From Kaistella gelatinilytica (GTDB lineage Bacteria > Bacteroidota > Bacteroidia > Flavobacteriales > Weeksellaceae): a stretch of 64,000 nucleotides of DNA. Shown one piece after another: positions 24,469-64,000 of the stretch (position 1 is its first letter; each line of letters begins with the position of its first letter). The stretch is taken from positions 733,126 to 797,125 of the forward strand of contig NZ_JADPVI010000002.1 in NCBI RefSeq assembly GCF_015679325.1, given 5' to 3'. The notes under the pieces are model-generated. The model saw only the letters and a program-made list of their open reading frames with translations. It was not told the DNA's origin and ran no database searches. A program made the position numbers and the translations under genes.

Positions 24469-25926
24469 TTATCCCACACTTCCCTCCAAAGATATTTCTA
24501 ATAATTTCTGAGCTTCGATGGCAAATTCCATCGGTAATTTATTCAAAACTTCTTTACCGAAACCGTTGACGATCAAAGCAATTGCTTTTTCTGTACTGAT
24601 TCCCCGCTGGTTACAATAGAAGATCTGATCCTCACCGATTTTTGAAGTGGTGGCTTCGTGTTCGAGTTGTGCGCTCGTATTTTTAACTTCGATATAAGGG
24701 AAAGTATGCGCACCACATTCATTGCCCATCAATAAAGAATCACATTGTGAAAAGTTACGCGCTCCTTTTGCAGAAGGCATCATTTTCACCAAACCTCTAT
24801 AAGAATTGTTTGATTTTCCGGCTGAGATTCCTTTAGAAATAATCGTTGATTTGGTATTCTTCCCGATGTGGATCATCTTCGTTCCAGTATCAGCATATTG
24901 ATGATGATTCGTAACCGCAATCGAATAAAATTCTCCGACTGAGTTATCACCTTTCAATATACAAGAAGGATATTTCCAGGTTACAGCAGAACCTGTTTCA
25001 ACTTGCGTCCAGGAGATTTTTGCGTTTTTCTCACAAATTCCTCGTTTTGTTACGAAATTGAAAACGCCACCCTTTCCTTCTGAATCTCCGGGATACCAAT
25101 TTTGTACGGTTGAATATTTGATTTCAGCATCATCCATAGCAAAAAGTTCTACTACAGCGGCGTGCAATTGGTTTTCATCTCTTGCAGGTGCGGTACAACC
25201 TTCGAGGTAAGAAACGTAACTTCCTTCATCAGCGATGAGTAAAGTTCTTTCAAACTGTCCACTTCCGGATTGGTTAATTCTAAAGTAAGTTGAAAGTTCC
25301 ATCGGACATTTAATGCCTTTTGGAATATAACAGAAACTTCCGTCAGAAAATACTGCTGAATTTAAAGCTGCGTAATAGTTATCTCCTCTTGGAACAACTT
25401 TACCGATATATTTACGAACCAATTCGGGATAATCTCTGATTGCTTCAGAGATCGCACAGAAAATAATTCCTTTTTCTTTTAATGTTTTTTGAAAAGTCGT
25501 TTTTACAGAAACCGAATCGATCACAATATCCATTGCAACTCCTGAAAGTCTTTTTTGCTCCTCAATGTTAATACCCAGCTTCGCAAATGTTTTCAATAAT
25601 TCAGGATCAACTTCATCTAAACTTGCTAATTCAGGCTTTACTTTCGGTGCTGAATAATATTGAATTGCTTGAAAATCAGGTTTTTCATAAGAAACGTTCG
25701 CCCAATTTGGCTCTTCCATCTTCAACCAGATCCTGTAAGATTCCAAACGCCACTCCGTCATCCATTCCGGTTCTTCTTTTTTAGCAGAAATCATCCGCAC
25801 AATTTCTTCAGATAAACCGATGGGAAAATCCTCATACTCGATATCTGTCGTAAAACCGTATTCGTATTTTTGATTTTCTAGATCTACTCTTAAATCGTCT
25901 TCAGTATATTTTGTAACAGTTGCCAT
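24469..25926 (-). CDS. sufB: Fe-S cluster assembly protein SufB
   Basis: A 485-residue SufB with the features [42 protein letters not shown] and the C-terminal segment [14 protein letters not shown], which includes the conserved Cys near the assembly site. It is the core scaffold subunit. The gene starts 31 bp after sufA and is followed by a 125-bp gap before sufC; no hairpin terminator was noticed there, so one transcript is likely. Confidence 0.97.
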
Positions 25927-57917: not shown

Positions 57918-58040
57918 AGGAGCAACAGGATTTTCGCTTCTTACAAAACCAGTCCCGCTCCCCACTGTACCTGTCTGCCGACGGGCAGGTCTTTTTCTCC
58001 TCGTTCCTCTTCAAAAAAGGATGCCGTTTCGATCGCGGCT
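57918..58040 (+). repeat. Dispersed palindromic repeat, copy 3
   Basis: This is the most complete copy, 123 bp, in the 326-bp gap before the recombinase. It shares AGGAGCAACA, TTTTCGCTTCTT, AAAAAAGGATGCCGTTTCGATC and GCGGCT with copy 1. An extra hairpin (CCTGTCTGCCGACGGGCAGG, about 57970-57990) sits inside. The gap also holds a -7-like TATCTTTA at 58071. Confidence 0.8.
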
Positions 58041-58098
58041 ATCATTCCAGTCACTTTATTTTACATTAGTTATCTTTATTACTCAAAATCAACCTGCT

Positions 58099-59142
58099 AT
58101 GATTTGGAAAGCAAAACTAATTAAACACAATAATTTAGATAGAATTGCTGTGGAATTCGAGAAGGATCAAGAACTGATTCGCAAAATAAGACTAATTGGG
58201 GATGCACGCTGGAGCGCCCAAAAAAAGCTTTGGCACATTCCGGATACGTTTGAAAACAGGGAGCGGTTTAAAATCATTCAACAAGAAGATACGCTTCCTT
58301 CCAATGATGGTATTGAGCAAATTAAAATATTTATACAGTGGCTCTCTTCGAAAAGGTATAGCCAAAATACTATAAAAACCTATTCTGCCGGACTTCGTTC
58401 TTTTTTTATTTTTTTCAGAAAAAAGAATATTTCAGAAATTACAAACGATGATGTCCTCTATTTTAATACGGAATATATTTTAAAAAATAATTTTTCTGCT
58501 TCCTATCAAAATCAAATAACGAGTGCTGTAAAATTGTATTTTAAAACCATTCGTGAAACTAAAATAGAAATTGAAAAAATTCACCGCCCGAAAACACCAA
58601 AAATCTTGCCCAATGTTTTAAGCAAAGAAGAAGTAAAATCTATTCTGAACGCGCACAGCAACATCAAACATAAAATGATGTTGAGTTTGATTTACAGTTG
58701 TGGTTTGCGCAGAAGCGAGTTACTCAACTTAAAACCTTTGGATATAGACTCTAAAAGAAACATTGTTATTATAAGACAGTCTAAAGGAAAGAAGGATCGA
58801 ATAACGCCACTATCTCCGAAAATTTTGGACTTACTGCGGATCTATTACAAAGAATACAAACCAACAAATTTTCTGTTTGAAGGGCATCAAAAAGGTTTTA
58901 GATATTCTGAAAGAAGTTTGGAGGAGGTTCTGAAGAAAAGTATTAAATTAGCAAATATCAATAAACCTGTAACGCTGCACTGGCTTAGACACAGTTACGC
59001 TACGCATCTGTTAGAAAGCGGAACAGATTTAAGATATATTCAAGAATTATTAGGACATAACAGCAGTAGAACCACGGAAATCTACACGCACGTAAGCACG
59101 AAAAATTTACAGCATATTAAAAGTCCTTTTGATGATTTATAA
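58099..59142 (+). CDS. Tyrosine recombinase of the cassette array
   Basis: 347 residues from ATG 58099. An upstream in-frame extension from 57868 only translates the dispersed repeat and is rejected. Residues ~1-60 form a small extra N-terminal domain (ARWSAQKKLWHIPDT). A SAM-like core-binding domain spans ~71-152. The catalytic domain has Arg204 (GLRRSELLNL), Lys near 229 (SKGKKDR), His294/Arg297 (HWLRHS), His320 (LLGH) and nucleophile Tyr329. It ends SPFDDL, like the IntI end SPLDAL, but Arg-to-HxxR spacing is only 90 residues, as in XerD, so the IntI-specific insertion is absent. It most likely moves the downstream cassettes. Confidence 0.85.
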   Translation: MIWKAKLIKHNNLDRIAVEFEKDQELIRKIRLIGDARWSAQKKLWHIPDTFENRERFKIIQQEDTLPSNDGIEQIKIFIQWLSSKRYSQNTIKTYSAGLRSFFIFFRKKNISEITNDDVLYFNTEYILKNNFSASYQNQITSAVKLYFKTIRETKIEIEKIHRPKTPKILPNVLSKEEVKSILNAHSNIKHKMMLSLIYSCGLRRSELLNLKPLDIDSKRNIVIIRQSKGKKDRITPLSPKILDLLRIYYKEYKPTNFLFEGHQKGFRYSERSLEEVLKKSIKLANINKPVTLHWLRHSYATHLLESGTDLRYIQELLGHNSSRTTEIYTHVSTKNLQHIKSPFDDL

Positions 59143-59153
59143 AAAAAATAAAA

Positions 59154-59240
59154 CTCAACTATAGTTGAGCAAACACAACAGCATATTGTTATATTTGCTC
59201 AATAAATTGCGATAAAGTTGAGCATATAAGTAAGTTGGCA
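59154..59240 (+). promoter_or_regulatory. attI-like recombination site
   Basis: Three copies of the word TTGAGCA: GTTGAGCAAA at 59164, its complement TTTGCTCAA at 59194, and GTTGAGCAT at 59217. The first two form a 9-bp stem, and the first also lies in the 16-bp palindrome CTCAACTATAGTTGAG (59154-59169). They precede GTTGGCA at 59234, where the first cassette begins; that cassette's far end (TGCCAAC, 59852) is its complement. The words are candidate recombinase binding sites. Confidence 0.65.
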
Positions 59241-59267
59241 GAAATTTTAAAAACTAAAACATCATAT

Positions 59268-59843
59268 ATGAAAATTTTACAATATTTAATTATCTTATAT
59301 TTTGTAATATTTTCGTGCACTAAAAACATTGTAGATAATAGCAGTAAAGTAGAACAAATTAAAATTTCTGAAAATATATTTTCAACTACAGATATTAAAA
59401 TTAATATAGTCGCAAAAAATGAAATTGATGATGAAATCATCTTTTTAATAAAAGGAATTTATAAAGGGAAAATTGTAGGTTTTCAAATTAAAGTCAATAA
59501 AGTATTTGAAAAAGAAATAGCAGTTTCATATCCTTTGGTTTTTTCAAATATCGGAAAAGAAACTGATAATTTTGTTAAGGCATTTACGGAAATATTAAAA
59601 CAAAAAATGCAGGTTCATAAGATCCCTCAAAATTTTACTTTTGAATGCTACAATCAAAATCGCAGAAAAGTAGACCTAACTTCCAAAGATGTTCTAATAT
59701 TAAAAATTGTGTCAACTGAAAAAACAAAAGATGATATCGAATTTTTTTTAATGATCAATACGAATGAAGACTATATTGTAATATCAGAAAAAGATTCGAA
59801 TTTTAGGAAAGGAATAATCAATATCTTCTCGGGAAATAAATAA
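59268..59843 (+). CDS. Cassette 1 lipoprotein, unknown
   Basis: 191 residues from ATG 59268. An in-frame TTG at 59235 is the cassette junction itself and an unlikely start. Lipoprotein signal MKILQYLIILYFVIFSC (Cys17). The mature part is beta/alpha-like and lysine-rich (IVGFQIKVNKVFEKE), with no recognised domain. The stop is 8 bp before the attC-like core. Base composition is more AT-rich than the core genes, in keeping with acquired DNA. Confidence 0.7.
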   Translation: MKILQYLIILYFVIFSCTKNIVDNSSKVEQIKISENIFSTTDIKINIVAKNEIDDEIIFLIKGIYKGKIVGFQIKVNKVFEKEIAVSYPLVFSNIGKETDNFVKAFTEILKQKMQVHKIPQNFTFECYNQNRRKVDLTSKDVLILKIVSTEKTKDDIEFFLMINTNEDYIVISEKDSNFRKGIINIFSGNK

Positions 59844-59851
59844 AAAACTTC

Positions 59852-59984
59852 TGCCAACAAGGTATTTCTATTAGCGGGGCGGAAGTTTATGTCATCAAGA
59901 CTTTCGCTAATTGTTCAATTTGTTATATTTACAAAGACTTGTTATAAAAAGTCCCCGCCAACAGAAATACCCAACCGTTAGCGG
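59852..59984 (+). repeat. attC-like site A
   Basis: Left core TGCCAAC (59852), right core GTTAGCG (59977). Inner stems GGTATTTCT/AGAAATACC and GCGGGG/CCCCGC enclose a ~75-base loop. Near-identical in the loop to sites D, E and F (TTGTTCAATTTGTTATATTT). Confidence 0.8.
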
Positions 59985-60028
59985 TCATTCTAAGGACGAC
60001 CACCAGAACATAAACGACAGAAATAAAA

Positions 60029-60703
60029 ATGACATTTAAAGTATTCACATTAGGACTTCTAATATTTGTTGGCTTGACAAGTTGCAATCAAAACTCAAAC
60101 AAGCAAATTGAAGGACAAACGAAATCAACTTTGGTTGCGGACAAAGAAATTTTCAGTTTATACAAAAAGTCAGACAATATCATTAATGTTGCAAGAGCAT
60201 TGAAAAATGGCAATGGTAAGTTTGACTTGCATTTATATGAGTTAAACATATCAACTCCTGAAAGTGGCAAACAGACTTTTACTTCTCTTCAACAGTTGAC
60301 GAAGCAACAACTTGACAATAAAAAAACTGAATTACTCCGCACGTACAACTGGACAACTTTCAAAGGCAATGAAGTTTTATTTGTTCAAATTCAGCCTATA
60401 GGTTTCAAGGACGAAATGCAACTACTTGACAAACGACAAGAAATTGAAGATAAATTGAGTAAGGCTCTTGAAAATAAAAAACTTGGGGAATGGTTCGCTA
60501 GTGACTTAGGACCAGGCGGTGGAAATATGCTTTATACTGTAACGGACATTGATAAATCATTACAAGTTGTTCGTGAAGTTTTGCAACAAAATAATTTAGA
60601 CAAAAATGTTTTAATAGGTAGAAGAGTTTTGGTGGATAATGATGACTGGTTTTATGAGGTTATTTATCCAACGAAATATTCGGGTGAATTTAATACAATG
60701 TAA
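60029..60703 (+). CDS. Cassette 2 lipoprotein, unknown
   Basis: A 224-residue lipoprotein (lipobox LTSC, Cys19). The mature domain is an alpha/beta fold (KFDLHLYELNISTPESGKQ, FVQIQPIGFKDEMQLLDKRQ) without a family I recognise. The repeating DKRQEIEDKLSKALENKKLGEWFASDLG segment looks helical and could be a ligand or partner surface. Start 52 bp after the cassette junction; stop 24 bp before the next core. It is a single-ORF cassette. Confidence 0.7.
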   Translation: MTFKVFTLGLLIFVGLTSCNQNSNKQIEGQTKSTLVADKEIFSLYKKSDNIINVARALKNGNGKFDLHLYELNISTPESGKQTFTSLQQLTKQQLDNKKTELLRTYNWTTFKGNEVLFVQIQPIGFKDEMQLLDKRQEIEDKLSKALENKKLGEWFASDLGPGGGNMLYTVTDIDKSLQVVREVLQQNNLDKNVLIGRRVLVDNDDWFYEVIYPTKYSGEFNTM

Positions 60704-60727
60704 AATGCGGAGGATAAAAGAACGAAC

Positions 60728-60855
60728 CGCTAACAAGGTATTTATACAAGCGGGTCTGAAGTTTTCATCGAAGATTTTAGCCATTAATTAAGTTTTTAGC
60801 AAGTATAAAGTTTTCGTATTTTTAGCCCGCCTGCATAAATACCCAACCGTTAGCT
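60728..60855 (+). repeat. attC-like site B (divergent loop)
   Basis: CGCTAAC (60728) and GTTAGCT (60849). Stems GGTATTTAT/ATAAATACC and GCGGG/CCCGC. The loop differs from A, D, E and F, but the stem positions are kept by compensatory changes (CA/TG instead of TT/AA between the stems). Confidence 0.78.
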
Positions 60856-61173
60856 GCAATATTTCCACACCGCTTTTTTAGCCAATTTTTTTTGAGTTTT
60901 AAGATCGGATTTTTTTACGAAATTCTTGAGAATTACTGAAATCTCACCTGTAAGAATGGACTGTAATTTTCGTGCGGAGATTTATAGGAATGGAAATTTA
61001 CTGTGAATCACGGAAAAACCCACACTGGAAAACTTTTCCTTGAATTTTGGAATTTATTGGAGAAATTTAAATCTAACTTAACTCAATGAGGTAAACTTCT
61101 ACCCTTTCTAAAAATTATCAACCTGAATAAAAATTTCTGTCTAACTAAAAACTTTTTGGAGAAGAAATACTGC
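60856..61173 (+). other. Cassette 3 without a recognisable ORF
   Basis: 318 bp between sites B and C with no ORF of useful length on the plus strand; the best, at 60956, has 16 codons. It holds two to three short internal inverted repeats but no gene signal. It may be an ORF-less cassette, a small RNA or a promoter cassette. Confidence 0.6.
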
Positions 61174-61302
61174 AGCTAACACAAGATTTCTACAAGCGGG
61201 GACGAAGTTTTTAATCCACGATTTTAGATATTATCACTATATTCGTAAATAGATAACGCAGTTATATTAAACCCCGCCTGCAGAAATCCCCGGACGTTAG
61301 TA
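61174..61302 (+). repeat. attC-like site C (divergent)
   Basis: AGCTAAC (61174) and GTTAGTA (61296). Stems GATTTCT/AGAAATC and GCGGGG/CCCCGC. The right shoulder reads CCCCGGACG instead of the usual CCCAACCG. Confidence 0.75.
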
Positions 61303-61333
61303 GCCATTTTAAAAACCAGCGACAATTCACGAT

Positions 61334-61753
61334 TTGAAAAAAAATATAAAACAGATTTTTGGAATTTTTATATTTCTTTTAAATATAAATGTTTACTCTC
61401 AAAAAGTTAGTTTGACAATTGACTGTAAAGAAATCGTGTTTGATTCTCTCAAATACGAAAACAAAATAGTACTATATAAAATTTTATCCAAGAGAGTCCT
61501 TTACACAAAGGGAACAACTTCGTATTTTACCACAGATATTTTATTGCCAGAATTTGATAAAAATTCTGACCGTTCCTTACTACAGATTATCATAAATAAG
61601 ATTTCGGAAAATAATCAAACGGATGAATTTAATGCGTTTAAAAACTGTGAGTCTAAAGAAACATTTTATCAAAAAACAAAATTATCGCGGAAACAAAAAC
61701 AAATCTTAAAACAGAATTTCATTGGTTATTTTTATAGAAATAACATAAAATAA
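61334..61753 (+). CDS. Cassette 4 exported protein, unknown
   Basis: A 139-residue protein using a TTG start at 61334 (MKKNIKQIFGIF), which gives a normal signal peptide ending VYSQ; no ATG exists in frame before the signal. The mature part is small, with Lys-rich C-terminus (KLSRKQKQILKQNF) and one Cys pair (Cys31, Cys108). No family recognised. The stop is 7 bp before the attC-like core. Confidence 0.6.
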   Translation: MKKNIKQIFGIFIFLLNINVYSQKVSLTIDCKEIVFDSLKYENKIVLYKILSKRVLYTKGTTSYFTTDILLPEFDKNSDRSLLQIIINKISENNQTDEFNAFKNCESKETFYQKTKLSRKQKQILKQNFIGYFYRNNIK

Positions 61754-61760
61754 AAACGGC

Positions 61761-61892
61761 TACTAACAAGGTATTTCTATTAGCGGGTCGGAAGTTCCTA
61801 TCATAAAAGTTTTCGCTAATTGTTCAATTTGTTATATTTACAAAGACTTCTTAAAAAAAGTCCCCACCAACAGAAATACCCAACCGTTAGCG
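61761..61892 (+). repeat. attC-like site D
   Basis: TACTAAC (61761) and GTTAGCG (61886), same loop subfamily as A. The stem has CCCCAC for CCCCGC, giving a C-A mismatch. Confidence 0.78.
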
Positions 61893-61947
61893 ACTACCTT
61901 AAAACCAGGTTAAGTAATAAAACCTTTGAATAAATTAAAACAAATAA

Positions 61948-62217
61948 ATGTCTAAATTCTTCGAACTTATCACTGAATCGATTGGTTGGTTACAAATAGT
62001 AGCATCACCTTTTTTAATTGGAATTTGTATTGGATCTTTTATTTATTTTCCTAACCAAACTTCTACTCGACTTGTATTAGGAGTTATAATAGCAACTTTA
62101 GGACTTGTCATAGGAATAATTTGGGCAACTAAAGCATGGAAAGGCAAAGGAACAATTTGGACAATATCGAGAGTAATGGCAACACCTGAATTAGATGAGC
62201 CAGATGATGAAAATTGA
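61948..62217 (+). CDS. Cassette 5 small membrane protein
   Basis: An 89-residue protein with two hydrophobic segments (IGWLQIVASPFLIGICIGSF and LVLGVIIATLGLVIGIIW) and a soluble C-terminal tail ending in acidic residues (PELDEPDDEN). Predicted inner-membrane hairpin; no named family. It starts 61 bp after the junction and ends 21 bp before the next site. The only cassette product here without an export signal, though still membrane-located. Confidence 0.65.
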   Translation: MSKFFELITESIGWLQIVASPFLIGICIGSFIYFPNQTSTRLVLGVIIATLGLVIGIIWATKAWKGKGTIWTISRVMATPELDEPDDEN

Positions 62218-62238
62218 GATCTGTAAATAAAAGGCAAT

Positions 62239-62370
62239 CGCTAACACGGTATTTCTATTAGCGGGGCGGAAGTTTCTATCATTAAGATTTTTGCTAATTG
62301 TTCAATTTGTTATATTTACAAAGGCTTGTTATAAAAAGTCCCCGCCAACAGAAATACCCAACCGTTACCA
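62239..62370 (+). repeat. attC-like site E
   Basis: CGCTAAC (62239) and GTTACCA (62364). Loop subfamily as A. Stems GGTATTTCT/AGAAATACC and GCGGGG/CCCCGC. Confidence 0.8.
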
Positions 62371-62391
62371 GCAATACTATCATAAAATCGT

Positions 62392-62955
62392 ATGAAGTTC
62401 AAAGTCATCATTTTTATAGTTTTCATCTTCTTTGTTGGATGTAAAAAGAATGAATCTAAATTTCAAGCAGAGATAATTCAAAATCCGGTCAGTGAAAAAA
62501 TCATTTACAACTTTATAAATAGTGCATTAATTGAAAATCGCGTTTATAAATCATGTCCAAATATTCTTGAAACAAAACGATTTATATATGAAAATATTGA
62601 TGAAAGCGAGTTAAATTATTTCTTGCGAAACTTAAAGGAAAATGATTCAACTTTCATAGAAAATCAATTAATCTCTCGCGAAAAATTTTATTGGAAAGAA
62701 AATTTACTAGCAAATAAAAAAGTAATTAAAATTGACACAACTGCTAATACTGATGAAGCACAAGATAAAAGTTGGAAAAACACTCTTTCAAAATACAAAT
62801 GTGTTCTGTTTATTAATCAACCTATTTTCAATAAAGGACTTAATTTAGCAATTGTAAAAATTCAAAACTCAGAATATTTAGAAACAGTTTTATTTCAGTT
62901 TATAAATGGAAAGTGGAAAAAAATTAAAGTTTTAGAAATTGGAATCATTGACTAA
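62392..62955 (+). CDS. Cassette 6 lipoprotein, unknown
   Basis: A 187-residue lipoprotein (lipobox FVGC, Cys16), with an alpha/beta mature part (YNFINSALIENRVYKSC, KCVLFINQPIFNKGLNLAI, NGKWKKIKVLEIG). The pattern resembles small Bacteroidota periplasmic proteins but no family is recognised. It starts 27 bp after the junction and ends 9 bp before the next site. Confidence 0.7.
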   Translation: MKFKVIIFIVFIFFVGCKKNESKFQAEIIQNPVSEKIIYNFINSALIENRVYKSCPNILETKRFIYENIDESELNYFLRNLKENDSTFIENQLISREKFYWKENLLANKKVIKIDTTANTDEAQDKSWKNTLSKYKCVLFINQPIFNKGLNLAIVKIQNSEYLETVLFQFINGKWKKIKVLEIGIID

Positions 62956-62964
62956 AAGTACTGC

Positions 62965-63095
62965 TGGTAACACGGTATTTCTATTAGCGGGTCGGAAGTT
63001 TCTATCATAAAGATTTTTGTTAATTGATCAATTTGTTATATTTACAAAGACCATTTATAAAAAATCCCGCCAACAGAAATACCCAACCGTTATCT
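62965..63095 (+). repeat. attC-like site F
   Basis: TGGTAAC (62965) and GTTATCT (63089). Loop subfamily as A, with small changes (TTGATCAATTTG). Stems GGTATTTCT/AGAAATACC and GCGGG/CCCGC. Confidence 0.8.
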
Positions 63096-63120
63096 GCAAT
63101 CTAAAATTAAAATATCATAA

Positions 63121-63951
63121 ATGAAATTTCTTACCCTTATTCTTTTACTCGCAACAAGTATTTTAGGAGCGCAAACTAATCGTTACATTTACGAACTTAA
63201 ACTAAAAATGGACTCAACGGAAATTGAATATCAAAAATCGTACATGGTTTTAGATATTGGACAATTGGATACTAAATTCTATGGAAGAGATCTGCTAGTC
63301 ACTGATTCACTGAATAATAAGTTCGGAAATCTTGATAATAGATACGTAGATATGACAGGACAAATTGTTAAGCGAAAAAACGGAACATCAAAAAATGAAA
63401 ATTTCATTAATATAAAATTTGAATATTATTCGTTCATTACCAGTGATCCTATAACATGGAATATTCTTCGAGAAACAAAAAGCGAAAACGGATATACACT
63501 TCAAAAGGCAACCGGAAATTTTGGAGGAAGAAAATGGATTGCCTGGTTTAATAAAGACATTCCCTTTAATGAAGGTCCTTACAAATTTTGCGGATTGCCA
63601 GGATTGATATTTGAAATTATGGACGACAAACAAAATTTTATTTACAAATTGGTAAAAAATCAAAATTTAAAAGAAAATATTTCAACAGAAAGCTTTGTGG
63701 AAAGCAATTTTGGAAATAAAGCGATACCAATAAATGAACAACAAAAAAGAAAACTATTATTAAATTTTTACAACGATCCTTTCGCATTTGAAAGGGAAAG
63801 TTTCAAAAATAATACGGATTTAAAAATCAATATTGGGGGCAAAGAAGCACATAATATTGAAGAATTGAATACTCTAGTAAAAAGTATGCAATCTATTATT
63901 CGCAAATACAACAATCCCCTGGAAATTGACAAAGTCATACATTACAAATAA
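63121..63951 (+). CDS. Cassette 7 GLPGLI family exported protein
   Basis: A 276-residue protein with a signal peptide ending LGAQ (about 18). The family motif is FNEGPYKFCGLPGLIFEIMD, preceded by KWIAWFNKDIP, as in the core-genome GLPGLI protein at 26434. Other shared features are the opening RYIYELKLKMDST and the C-terminal NNPLEI. Function unknown. Its presence as a cassette shows that a house family can be mobilised by this system, or that a cassette can be captured by a core locus. Confidence 0.85.
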   Translation: MKFLTLILLLATSILGAQTNRYIYELKLKMDSTEIEYQKSYMVLDIGQLDTKFYGRDLLVTDSLNNKFGNLDNRYVDMTGQIVKRKNGTSKNENFINIKFEYYSFITSDPITWNILRETKSENGYTLQKATGNFGGRKWIAWFNKDIPFNEGPYKFCGLPGLIFEIMDDKQNFIYKLVKNQNLKENISTESFVESNFGNKAIPINEQQKRKLLLNFYNDPFAFERESFKNNTDLKINIGGKEAHNIEELNTLVKSMQSIIRKYNNPLEIDKVIHYK

Positions 63952-63961
63952 AATAGAATGC

Positions 63962-64000
63962 AGATAACATCGTATTGGCAATAGTGCGGAAGAATCGCAA
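63962..64000 (+). repeat. attC-like site G, left part only
   Basis: AGATAAC core at 63962, complementary to the start of the same cassette at 63089. The following stem sequence (CGTATTGGCAATAGTGCGG) differs from the other sites, and the right half lies outside the window. Confidence 0.6.

What the first reader, a model, noticed from the sequence alone, without database searches (positions are those of the whole stretch)
58099..64000. Integron-like cassette array in a flavobacterial chromosome
A tyrosine recombinase gene is followed directly by an attI-like site and at least seven cassettes. Each carries at most one ORF, all are in the same direction, and each ends in a ~130-bp imperfect palindrome with GTT/AAC core ends and two inner stems. 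Cassette ORFs begin 26-61 bp after the predicted junction and end 7-24 bp before the next core, as in integrons. Integrons are best known from Proteobacteria; I am not aware of a standard description of this Bacteroidota type but cannot check. It could be a separate family of cassette-capture system.
Basis: partly seen in the sequence, partly recalled or inferred. Interest (0 to 1): 0.95.

Follow-up and report, generated by a model that had tools for sequence, protein, structure and literature searches.

The report
A second kind of integron
Behind a recombinase gene this Kaistella-type chromosome carries a row of small gene cassettes, each ending in a hairpin site, which the enzyme would likely capture and swap as integrons do, although it lacks the extra segment that integron enzymes are thought to need; the same kind of site is in 91 of 119 sampled Bacteroidia genomes.

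Summary
The array is real. A tyrosine recombinase (58099-59142) is followed by an attI-like junction (G|TT at 59234/59235), six complete cassettes and the start of a seventh; it continues on a contig that overlaps by 52 nt, 15 sites in all. A cassette's first 15 nt typically pair with its own last 15, around a conserved A.C mismatch, and the pairing covaries (199 Kaistella, 188 other cassettes), as expected of units that circularise and recombine at GTT. Near-identical cassettes lie between unrelated neighbours, also across species; near-identical platforms carry unrelated first cassettes. 248 of 249 plus-strand sites in 80 loci lie downstream of the recombinase. It works like an integron but fails the IntI tests: no IntI insertion (65 versus 106 residues between motifs) and no extrahelical bases; instead top-strand A.C mismatches become G.T wobbles on the bottom strand, which folds better in 215 of 219. 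Two recombinase clades are linked to such sites, one co-directional with its array, one divergent. Ten paper searches found no description. Movement itself, and the enzyme that does it, are untested.

The parts
58099..59142 (+). clade-1 tyrosine recombinase, 347 aa; R204, KGKKDR 229-234, HWLRH 294-298, H320, Y329 present (that these are the catalytic residues is recalled); about 70 aa N-terminal to the SAM-like domain; no IntI insertion
59143..59236 (+). attI-like region; predicted crossover G|TT at 59234/59235; inverted repeats upstream (GCTCAA...TTGAGC)
   Evidence: start of cassette 1 (GTTGGCAGAA) is complementary to its own end (sequence); similar motif in 82 of 92 clade-1 regions
59190..59197 (+). 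TATATTTG, predicted -7 box of an array-ward promoter (inferred; consensus recalled)
   Evidence: TANNTTTG in 53 of 92 clade-1 regions toward the array, 8 of 92 on the other strand, shuffled mean 3.1
59235..59977 (+). cassette 1, ORF 59268-59843 (lipoprotein-like by eye)
59856..59979 (+). attC-like site A (AAC to GTT)
59978..60849 (+). cassette 2, ORF 60029-60703; no full-length DNA relative in 35 other genomes of the genus
60732..60851 (+). attC-like site B
60850..61296 (+). cassette 3, no convincing ORF; body 95% identical to a cassette of another species (G009:C23) with unrelated neighbours
61178..61298 (+). attC-like site C
61297..61886 (+). cassette 4, ORF 61334-61753
61765..61888 (+). attC-like site D
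61887..62364 (+). cassette 5, ORF 61948-62217 (membrane protein by eye); 73-77% DNA relatives in 4 other genomes of the genus
62243..62366 (+). attC-like site E
62365..63089 (+). cassette 6, ORF 62392-62955 (lipoprotein-like by eye)
62969..63091 (+). attC-like site F
63090..64000 (+). cassette 7 (cut by the window end), ORF 63121-63951, GLPGLI family; its site begins at AAC 63966 and is complete on contig C3 (L010:15381-15511, minus strand)

Best explanation
This is an integron-like cassette platform in which the adjacent tyrosine recombinase would likely excise cassettes as circles and insert them at an attI-like G|TT just behind its own gene, by predicted recombination of the folded bottom strand of each cassette's hairpin site. 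Shown by sequence: array, junction, own-end complementarity, traces of precise past movement of cassettes, and linkage of sites to the recombinase. Inferred: that this recombinase (and not XerC/XerD) is the enzyme, that it acts on the single-stranded bottom strand, and that the array is read from a promoter at the end of the recombinase gene. Proposed division of labour (inferred): the outer arm (GTT plus 12 nt, with an A.C on top that becomes a T.G wobble on the bottom) and the inner stem are the two recombinase boxes; the unequal spacer next to the AAC and GTT cores is the unpaired central spacer; strand choice comes from wobbles, not from extrahelical bases, which would fit an enzyme without the IntI insertion. 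Because the outer arm is complete only in the circle, the circle is predicted to fold more stably than an integrated site.
For: Own-end pairing after GTT: 229 Kaistella cassettes 0.69-0.93 over +1..+7 and 0.76-0.86 over +9..+12, above random pairs at each of these positions; 199 nonredundant: +4 TA47 CG45 GC37 AT36; +8 A.C in 178. 188 cassettes of other genera: +1..+6 0.91-0.94, +7 0.62, +8 A.C in 157, +9..+12 0.80-0.86, then 0.14-0.16. Bottom strand folds better in 215 of 219 and 171 of 185 reconstituted circles; own start -26.3, random start -19.7 kcal/mol. Movement: 32 near-identical cassette pairs among 227; of 16 inspected, 14 are alike over the whole cassette and break at CG|TT, with neighbours at chance identity. 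Platforms: 8 pairs (6 of them among four Flavobacterium loci) share 94-99% of the recombinase gene and 97-100% of attI, with no BLAST match in 500 nt after GTT. Linkage: 46 of 49 loci with at least 1.5 kb downstream have sites there. Cassette-1 start found 60-130 nt behind the gene in 40 of 52 loci at 12 or more of 14 matches. ORFs forward in 209 of 227 cassettes. A plasmid copy of the platform has 6 sites.
Against: No movement observed; enzyme-site pairing rests on linkage. 7 of 36 genomes of the genus have sites but no full-length clade-1 or clade-2 recombinase (G005 has 19 sites), so arrays can sit without a platform. Lone sites lie far from it in G000. The window recombinase scores above the XerA model (223.5 > 220). 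A C. oryzae plasmid platform has no site in 25 kb; loci L111, L115, L165 have none. In 10 of 52 loci the cassette-1 start was not found behind the gene, in 2 more only with 9-11 matches. 7 of 227 cassettes have the longer ORF reversed. 2 of 16 inspected cassette pairs differ at their ends, and of the 16 not inspected at least one shares a neighbour too. R2 was trained on 56 matches from 28 of the 80 loci, so one search is partly circular; R1 (Kaistella only) gave 52 of 54 matches on the right strand and side. Related sites are not independent.
Confidence: 0.85

Rival explanations
1. An ordinary IntI integron, merely divergent: the recombinase is a member of the IntI family that lost or shortened the insertion, and the sites are ordinary attC sites.
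For: TIGR02249 is the second-best NCBIfam model (203.5 bits); IntI4 2a3v is among the best fold matches; classical arrays of this phylum pair over +5..+7 as well (0.86-0.90; +1..+4 are forced by the search); weak R2 matches in classical loci all lie on the expected side (3 of 3, E 0.004-0.03).
Against: Below the IntI cut-off of 265 in 6 of 6 proteins, with the match in two stretches, one ending at profile 175-178, the other beginning at 236-241; 28 IntI form their own clade 100/100 without clades 1 and 2 (with long-branch warnings); no extrahelical base and longer arms.
Confidence: 0.15
2. The cassettes are moved by the housekeeping XerC/XerD, as in IMEX elements, and the nearby recombinase is a passenger.
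For: Other Xer-like genes were matched in the genomes of the genus and all 36 have sites, but 7 lack a full-length clade-1/2 gene. CTX phage shows that XerCD can use a hairpin (PMC4792948 passages; PMC7790495 section 21).
Against: 248 of 249 plus-strand sites lie downstream of the recombinase; attI-like junction at a near-fixed distance from it; two recombinase clades, each with its own layout.
Confidence: 0.07
3. A passive repeat family: cassettes are genes between REP- or MITE-like repeats, shuffled by homologous recombination.
For: Site loops are conserved between cassettes and lone sites lie elsewhere.
Against: Own-end complementarity outside the repeat, breakpoints at CG|TT, one direction, attI-like junction.
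Confidence: 0.03

Closest known systems
Integrons with IntI, attI and attC (sedentary chromosomal integrons)
   Same: Tyrosine recombinase, adjacent junction, one-way array of mostly single-ORF cassettes ending in hairpin sites; G|TT junction; cassette ends complementary; bottom strand folds better; a plasmid-borne copy; a group II intron in an array.
   Different: Recombinase without the IntI insertion (65 v 106 residues) and with about 70 extra N-terminal residues; inner stem without extrahelical base (bulge helps 4 of 247 and 34 of 235 sites v 17 of 22 classical); arm of 15 nt with a conserved A.C instead of about 10 nt; clade 1 is co-directional with its array.
Archaeal XerA / bacterial XerC-XerD with dif
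   Same: Closest solved sequences and folds (4a8e, 5hxy); NF040815 XerA model just met by the window protein.
   Different: Not one per genome: full-length clade 1/2 is missing from 7 of 36 genomes of the genus and stands beside other Xer-like genes; lies beside cassette arrays. A dif-like site was not searched for.
'Integron-like' subgroup of simple tyrosine recombinases (PMC8138268)
   Different: The passages I saw do not describe arrays or sites for them and call the insertion essential for integron function; whether these clades fall in that subgroup was not tested.

Membership tests
IntI integron | Recombinase carries the IntI-specific insertion (additional domain with the I2 helix) | tested here: not met
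   Motif spacing 65 residues in 76 of 78 clade-1 and 64 in 19 of 19 clade-2 proteins v 106 in the 15 of 28 IntI that matched both motifs; TIGR02249 under its cut-off in 6 of 6 proteins
IntI integron | attI recombination site next to the recombinase gene | tested here: met
   Cassette-1 start 60-130 nt behind the gene in 40 of 52 loci; motif YWTA..GTT in 82 of 92 regions (48 of 53 in a recheck, shuffled mean 5.1); function untested
IntI integron | Sites are imperfect hairpins with R and L boxes, central spacer and variable loop | tested here: met
IntI integron | Extrahelical bases in the L box | tested here: not met
   Ungapped 14-nt inner stem pairs 13.85 (247 sites), 13.10 (235) v 9.68 in 22 classical sites, bottom-strand G.T counted as paired
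IntI integron | R' core GTTRRRY | tested here: inconclusive
   5 of 227 here, but also only 4 of 21 in classical arrays of the same phylum
IntI integron | Tandem one-way cassettes, mostly one ORF each, that move as units | tested here: met
   (traces in sequence, no movement seen)
IntI integron | Recombinase excises and inserts cassettes through the single-stranded bottom strand | not testable with these tools
   only folding asymmetry
IntI integron | IntegronFinder/HattCI attC model hit | not tested
   model not available; own R2 model gave 3 weak matches in 10 IntI loci
Xer/dif | Single conserved housekeeping recombinase per genome | tested here: not met
   full-length clade 1/2 absent in 7 of 36 genomes, two copies of clade 1 in G014, G024 and G030
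Xer/dif | XerA model NF040815 | tested here: inconclusive
   223.5 v cut-off 220 for the window protein; 5 relatives 193.4-219.8, below it
Xer/dif | dif site and chromosome dimer resolution | not tested
   no dif search was made

The most novel reading that the evidence does not exclude
A second class of integron runs through the class Bacteroidia. Its recombinase does without the IntI insertion that holds the I2 helix, its sites need no extrahelical bases, and it chooses the strand through A.C/G.T asymmetry and a conserved mismatch in a 15-nt arm that is complete only in the excised circle. It may have been missed because integron finders ask for the IntI domain. Its attI, too, may be read as structure: its inverted repeats covary, and in one pair of near-identical recombinases (L118, L123) they differ altogether. 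If so, single-strand cassette recombination arose without I2, or existed before it.
Probability: 0.65. Interest if true: 0.93.

Novelty: new variant of a known kind. Interest (0 to 1): 0.88.

Why it matters
Work on IntI attributes the step from double-strand to single-strand recombination to gain of the I2 helix (abstract of PMC7790495), a 20-residue domain 'not identified elsewhere' that accommodates extrahelical bases (passage of PMC4792948). Here the IntI insertion and the extrahelical bases are missing together, while arrays, junctions and traces of cassette movement look the same. That gives a natural test of whether I2 is needed, and perhaps a second structure-guided recombinase for engineering. 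It also means that many Bacteroidia may hold a cassette pool that surveys do not count: a 2022 survey names one complete integron in Bacteroidetes proper (Salinibacter ruber M1; passage of PMC9024848), while R2 sites occur in 91 of 119 Bacteroidia genomes sampled here. Cassettes include defence-like genes, and one platform with sites lies on a plasmid.

Tried and rejected
Rfam: no family matches the sites at E up to 1. Classical GTTRRRY core as discriminator: rejected, since classical arrays of the phylum also rarely obey it. First motif-spacing regex was partial and took wrong ORFs; replaced, where 13 of 28 IntI and 1 of 78 clade-1 proteins still lacked the motif pair and give no spacing. IntI as origin of the clades: the tree separates them, but it warns of long branches and its root is only a midpoint; it held 27 of the 78 clade-1 proteins. 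AlphaFold model: pLDDT 82.7 but pTM 0.54, so the domain arrangement was not used. Cassette 2 as mobility evidence: no full-length relative in 35 genomes. IntI over the cut-off occurs in 84 of 296 phylum genomes, 1 of the 73 in the window's class (G072; my count of the rows).

Rows dropped or chosen before counts: 9 of 258 R2 matches (five minus-strand, two cut off by contig ends, two of odd length in L155); repeat loci, partial sites and gaps outside 50-4000 nt; 16 of 32 cassette pairs were picked, most of them pairs without shared neighbours. L118/L123, whose attI differ, is told apart from the other 8 pairs. One search holds two cassettes of L218 that look like chance; one search left L218 out. 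In one search the chain search forces +1..+4; clade-2 attI motif clear in 4 of 6 loci; G020 and G007 did not show it.

Literature: ten searches listed no description of this system; only titles, counts and abstract starts of the listed papers were seen, and bioRxiv and most subscription papers are not held. Seen: passages of PMC9024848, PMC9668308, PMC8138268, PMC2426708, PMC8618304, PMC4792948, PMC2727003; abstract, outline and section 21 of PMC7790495.
Full report
What is there. The window is the end of one contig of a 3.2-Mb genome. A 347-aa tyrosine recombinase at 58099-59142 is followed on the same strand by an array of cassettes. Six complete sites, A-F, lie 447-872 bp apart, and a seventh begins at 63966. 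The contig stops there, but its last 52 nt are the first 52 nt of contig C3 read backwards, and C3 carries nine sites on the matching strand, the seventh included: one array of 15 sites, split in the assembly. Many relatives end early too: 19 of 80 loci have under 700 nt behind the recombinase.

Anatomy of a site. Each site runs from AAC to GTT, about 120 nt apart. Inside is a long stem: of 14 ungapped positions a mean of 13.85 pair on the bottom strand in 247 distinct Kaistella sites and 13.10 in 235 sites of other genera. The top strand carries 620 A.C against 11 G.T, and 392 against 78; these A.C are G.T wobbles on the bottom strand and were counted as paired. In 22 classical sites from IntI loci of the same phylum, found with a model-free chain search, the ungapped stem pairs only 9.68 and a one-base bulge helps in 17; it helps in 4 of 247 and 34 of 235 here. 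So the classical extrahelical base is missing in most of these sites.

The cassette closes on itself. After the GTT, the first 12 nt of a cassette are mostly complementary to the 12 nt before the AAC at its own far end, except +8, which is usually A opposite C. Pairing stops at +13. In 199 nonredundant Kaistella cassettes all four Watson-Crick pairs occur at +4 (47, 45, 37, 36) and +8 is A.C in 178. In 188 cassettes of other genera, found with model R2, the profile is the same: 0.94, 0.93, 0.94, 0.91, 0.92, 0.91, 0.62, 0.03, 0.86, 0.85, 0.86, 0.80, then 0.14. Pairs drawn from different cassettes or loci match far less, and the two flanks of one integrated site match about like random ones (3.28 of 8, random 3.12, own ends 5.85). 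This is what a unit that circularises and recombines at GTT through a folded site would show. For most IntI cassettes self-pairing runs to 9-11 nt (passage of PMC2727003); in 21 classical cassettes here it holds to +7, that is 10 nt with the GTT (+1..+4 forced by the search). In this system it goes on past a mismatch to 15.

Strand. Folded as DNA, the reconstituted circle is more stable on the bottom strand in 215 of 219 Kaistella and 171 of 185 other cassettes, against 15 of 21 classical ones. The circle is more stable than the integrated site in 189 of 219; joining a random start gives -19.7 instead of -26.3 kcal/mol. IntI uses the bottom strand (passages of PMC2727003). That the enzyme here does so is inference.

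Past movement. Among 227 distinct Kaistella cassettes, 32 pairs have near-identical bodies. I picked 16 to inspect. In 14 the likeness fills the whole cassette and stops at CG|TT; neighbours on either side are at 0.23-0.40 ungapped identity, that is near chance (two of the pairs are cassettes of one array close together). In two, G006 1249094/863102 and G006 861420/G012 1805, the ends differ. Of the 16 not inspected, G013 1171863/1186143 shares its upstream neighbour too. One 643-bp cassette is 99.7% identical in two species (G005, G020); one is 99.7% identical in two arrays of G020 more than 600 kb apart; window cassette 3 is 95% identical in G009. Among loci of named genomes, 8 pairs share 94-99% of the recombinase gene and 97-100% of the attI stretch, and have no BLAST match in the 500 nt after GTT; six of the eight are pairs among four Flavobacterium loci, so they are not independent.

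Link to the recombinase. With R2, 248 of 249 plus-strand sites in 80 loci lie downstream of the recombinase, although 729,313 upstream and 384,500 downstream bases were searched; 46 of 49 loci with at least 1.5 kb downstream have sites. R2 was built from 56 matches in 28 of these loci; the Kaistella-only model R1 gave 54 matches, 52 of them plus and downstream. The start of cassette 1, found through its own-end pairing, lies 60-130 nt behind the gene in 40 of 52 loci with 12 or more of 14 matches, in 2 more with 9-11; in 10 it was not found there. 82 of 92 regions have a YWTA..GTT motif at 85-125 nt; in a recheck 48 of 53 have it, against a shuffled mean of 5.1. Upstream of it are inverted repeats whose letters differ between loci but stay complementary (-58..-55 with -26..-23, and -26..-23 with -15..-12); whether this is a folded attI, an attenuator or repeated binding sites is open. 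A TANNTTTG box, the recalled -7 element of Bacteroidota, points to the array in 53 of 92 regions, against 8 on the other strand.

Two recombinases, one kind of site. Clade 1 (the window's) is in 13 of 36 genomes of the genus (one copy, in G016, has a stop inside); clade 2, 35-43% identical, reads away from its array, the classical layout: of 20 clade-2 loci fetched, 13 have R1 matches, all beyond the 5' end of the gene and on the other strand. In 4 of 6 clade-2 loci a GCGTATATTTG..GTT junction lies 166-237 nt upstream of the gene. 29 of 36 genomes have one or both clades; all 36 have sites. G006 also has a large array next to a fragment of a clade-1 gene. Outside the genus, R2 sites occur in 91 of 119 Bacteroidia genomes at E 0.001; in seven that I picked and compared by eye across (G339, G355, G370, G395, G413 co-directional; G398, G425 divergent) the array lies beside a relative of the recombinase.

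What it is called. The recombinase is above the cut-off of the XerA model and below that of integron integrase. The latter matches in two stretches, one ending at profile position 175-178, the other beginning at 236-241 in the proteins for which it is shown, which leaves out the region of the IntI insertion. Motif spacing is 65 and 64 residues in clades 1 and 2 and 106 in the 15 IntI that matched the motifs. In the tree, 28 IntI are one clade (100/100) and clades 1 and 2 are together (99/90) outside it, with long-branch warnings. True IntI over the cut-off was found in 84 of 296 phylum genomes but in 1 of the 73 of the class Bacteroidia. So it works like an integron; by the insertion and extrahelical-base tests it is not an IntI integron.

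Cargo. 209 of 227 cassettes have their longest ORF forward, 7 reverse, 11 none of 50 aa. Of 80 cassette proteins scanned (75 drawn from 197, plus 5 more of the window), no Pfam family shown was in more than 2 (25 of 47 families shown); PADLOC gave families with one member each, among them a strong PD-Lambda-1.

Limits. Everything is sequence. Related sites are not independent, R2 is partly trained on what it found, E-values of the models are rough, and the enzyme has not been shown to cut these sites.

Noticed in passing
L231:22765-24081 (plasmid of Chryseobacterium sp. SNU WT5), site at 24572-24700: A group II intron (ltrA) sits in the cassette array, and a site resumes after it without its AAC core, as if the intron had entered the site; reminiscent of introns that target attC (the latter recalled).
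   Followed up: partly
L049 and L048 (G029, G003); L230:13969-15911: Several near-identical 329-aa tyrosine recombinases lie in or near arrays (L048, L049); on the C. oryzae plasmid a tyrosine recombinase sits beside an IS91 family transposase, twice, behind a clade-1 gene near which no site was found.
   Followed up: partly
window 57947-58044, minus strand: Sub-threshold match to the Flavo-1 RNA family (29.5 bits, gathering 42, E 0.0078) just upstream of the recombinase.
   Followed up: no
L118 and L123, about 95 nt upstream of the attI GTT: Recombinase genes are 96.6% identical, yet the attI hairpins have wholly different but self-complementary arms.
   Followed up: partly
G006:C1:1229824-1272723: Array of dozens of cassettes beside a 138-aa fragment of a clade-1 recombinase: a platform that seems to have lost its enzyme.
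   Followed up: no
G000 contig C1 near 657840 and 1463758, contig C2 near 206547: Lone sites far from any platform, like the orphan cassettes known from integrons.
   Followed up: no
loop of sites A, D, E and F, e.g. 59906-59937: The loop between the stems is strongly conserved between several cassettes although it is unpaired in the main stem; possible promoter or protein site.
   Followed up: no
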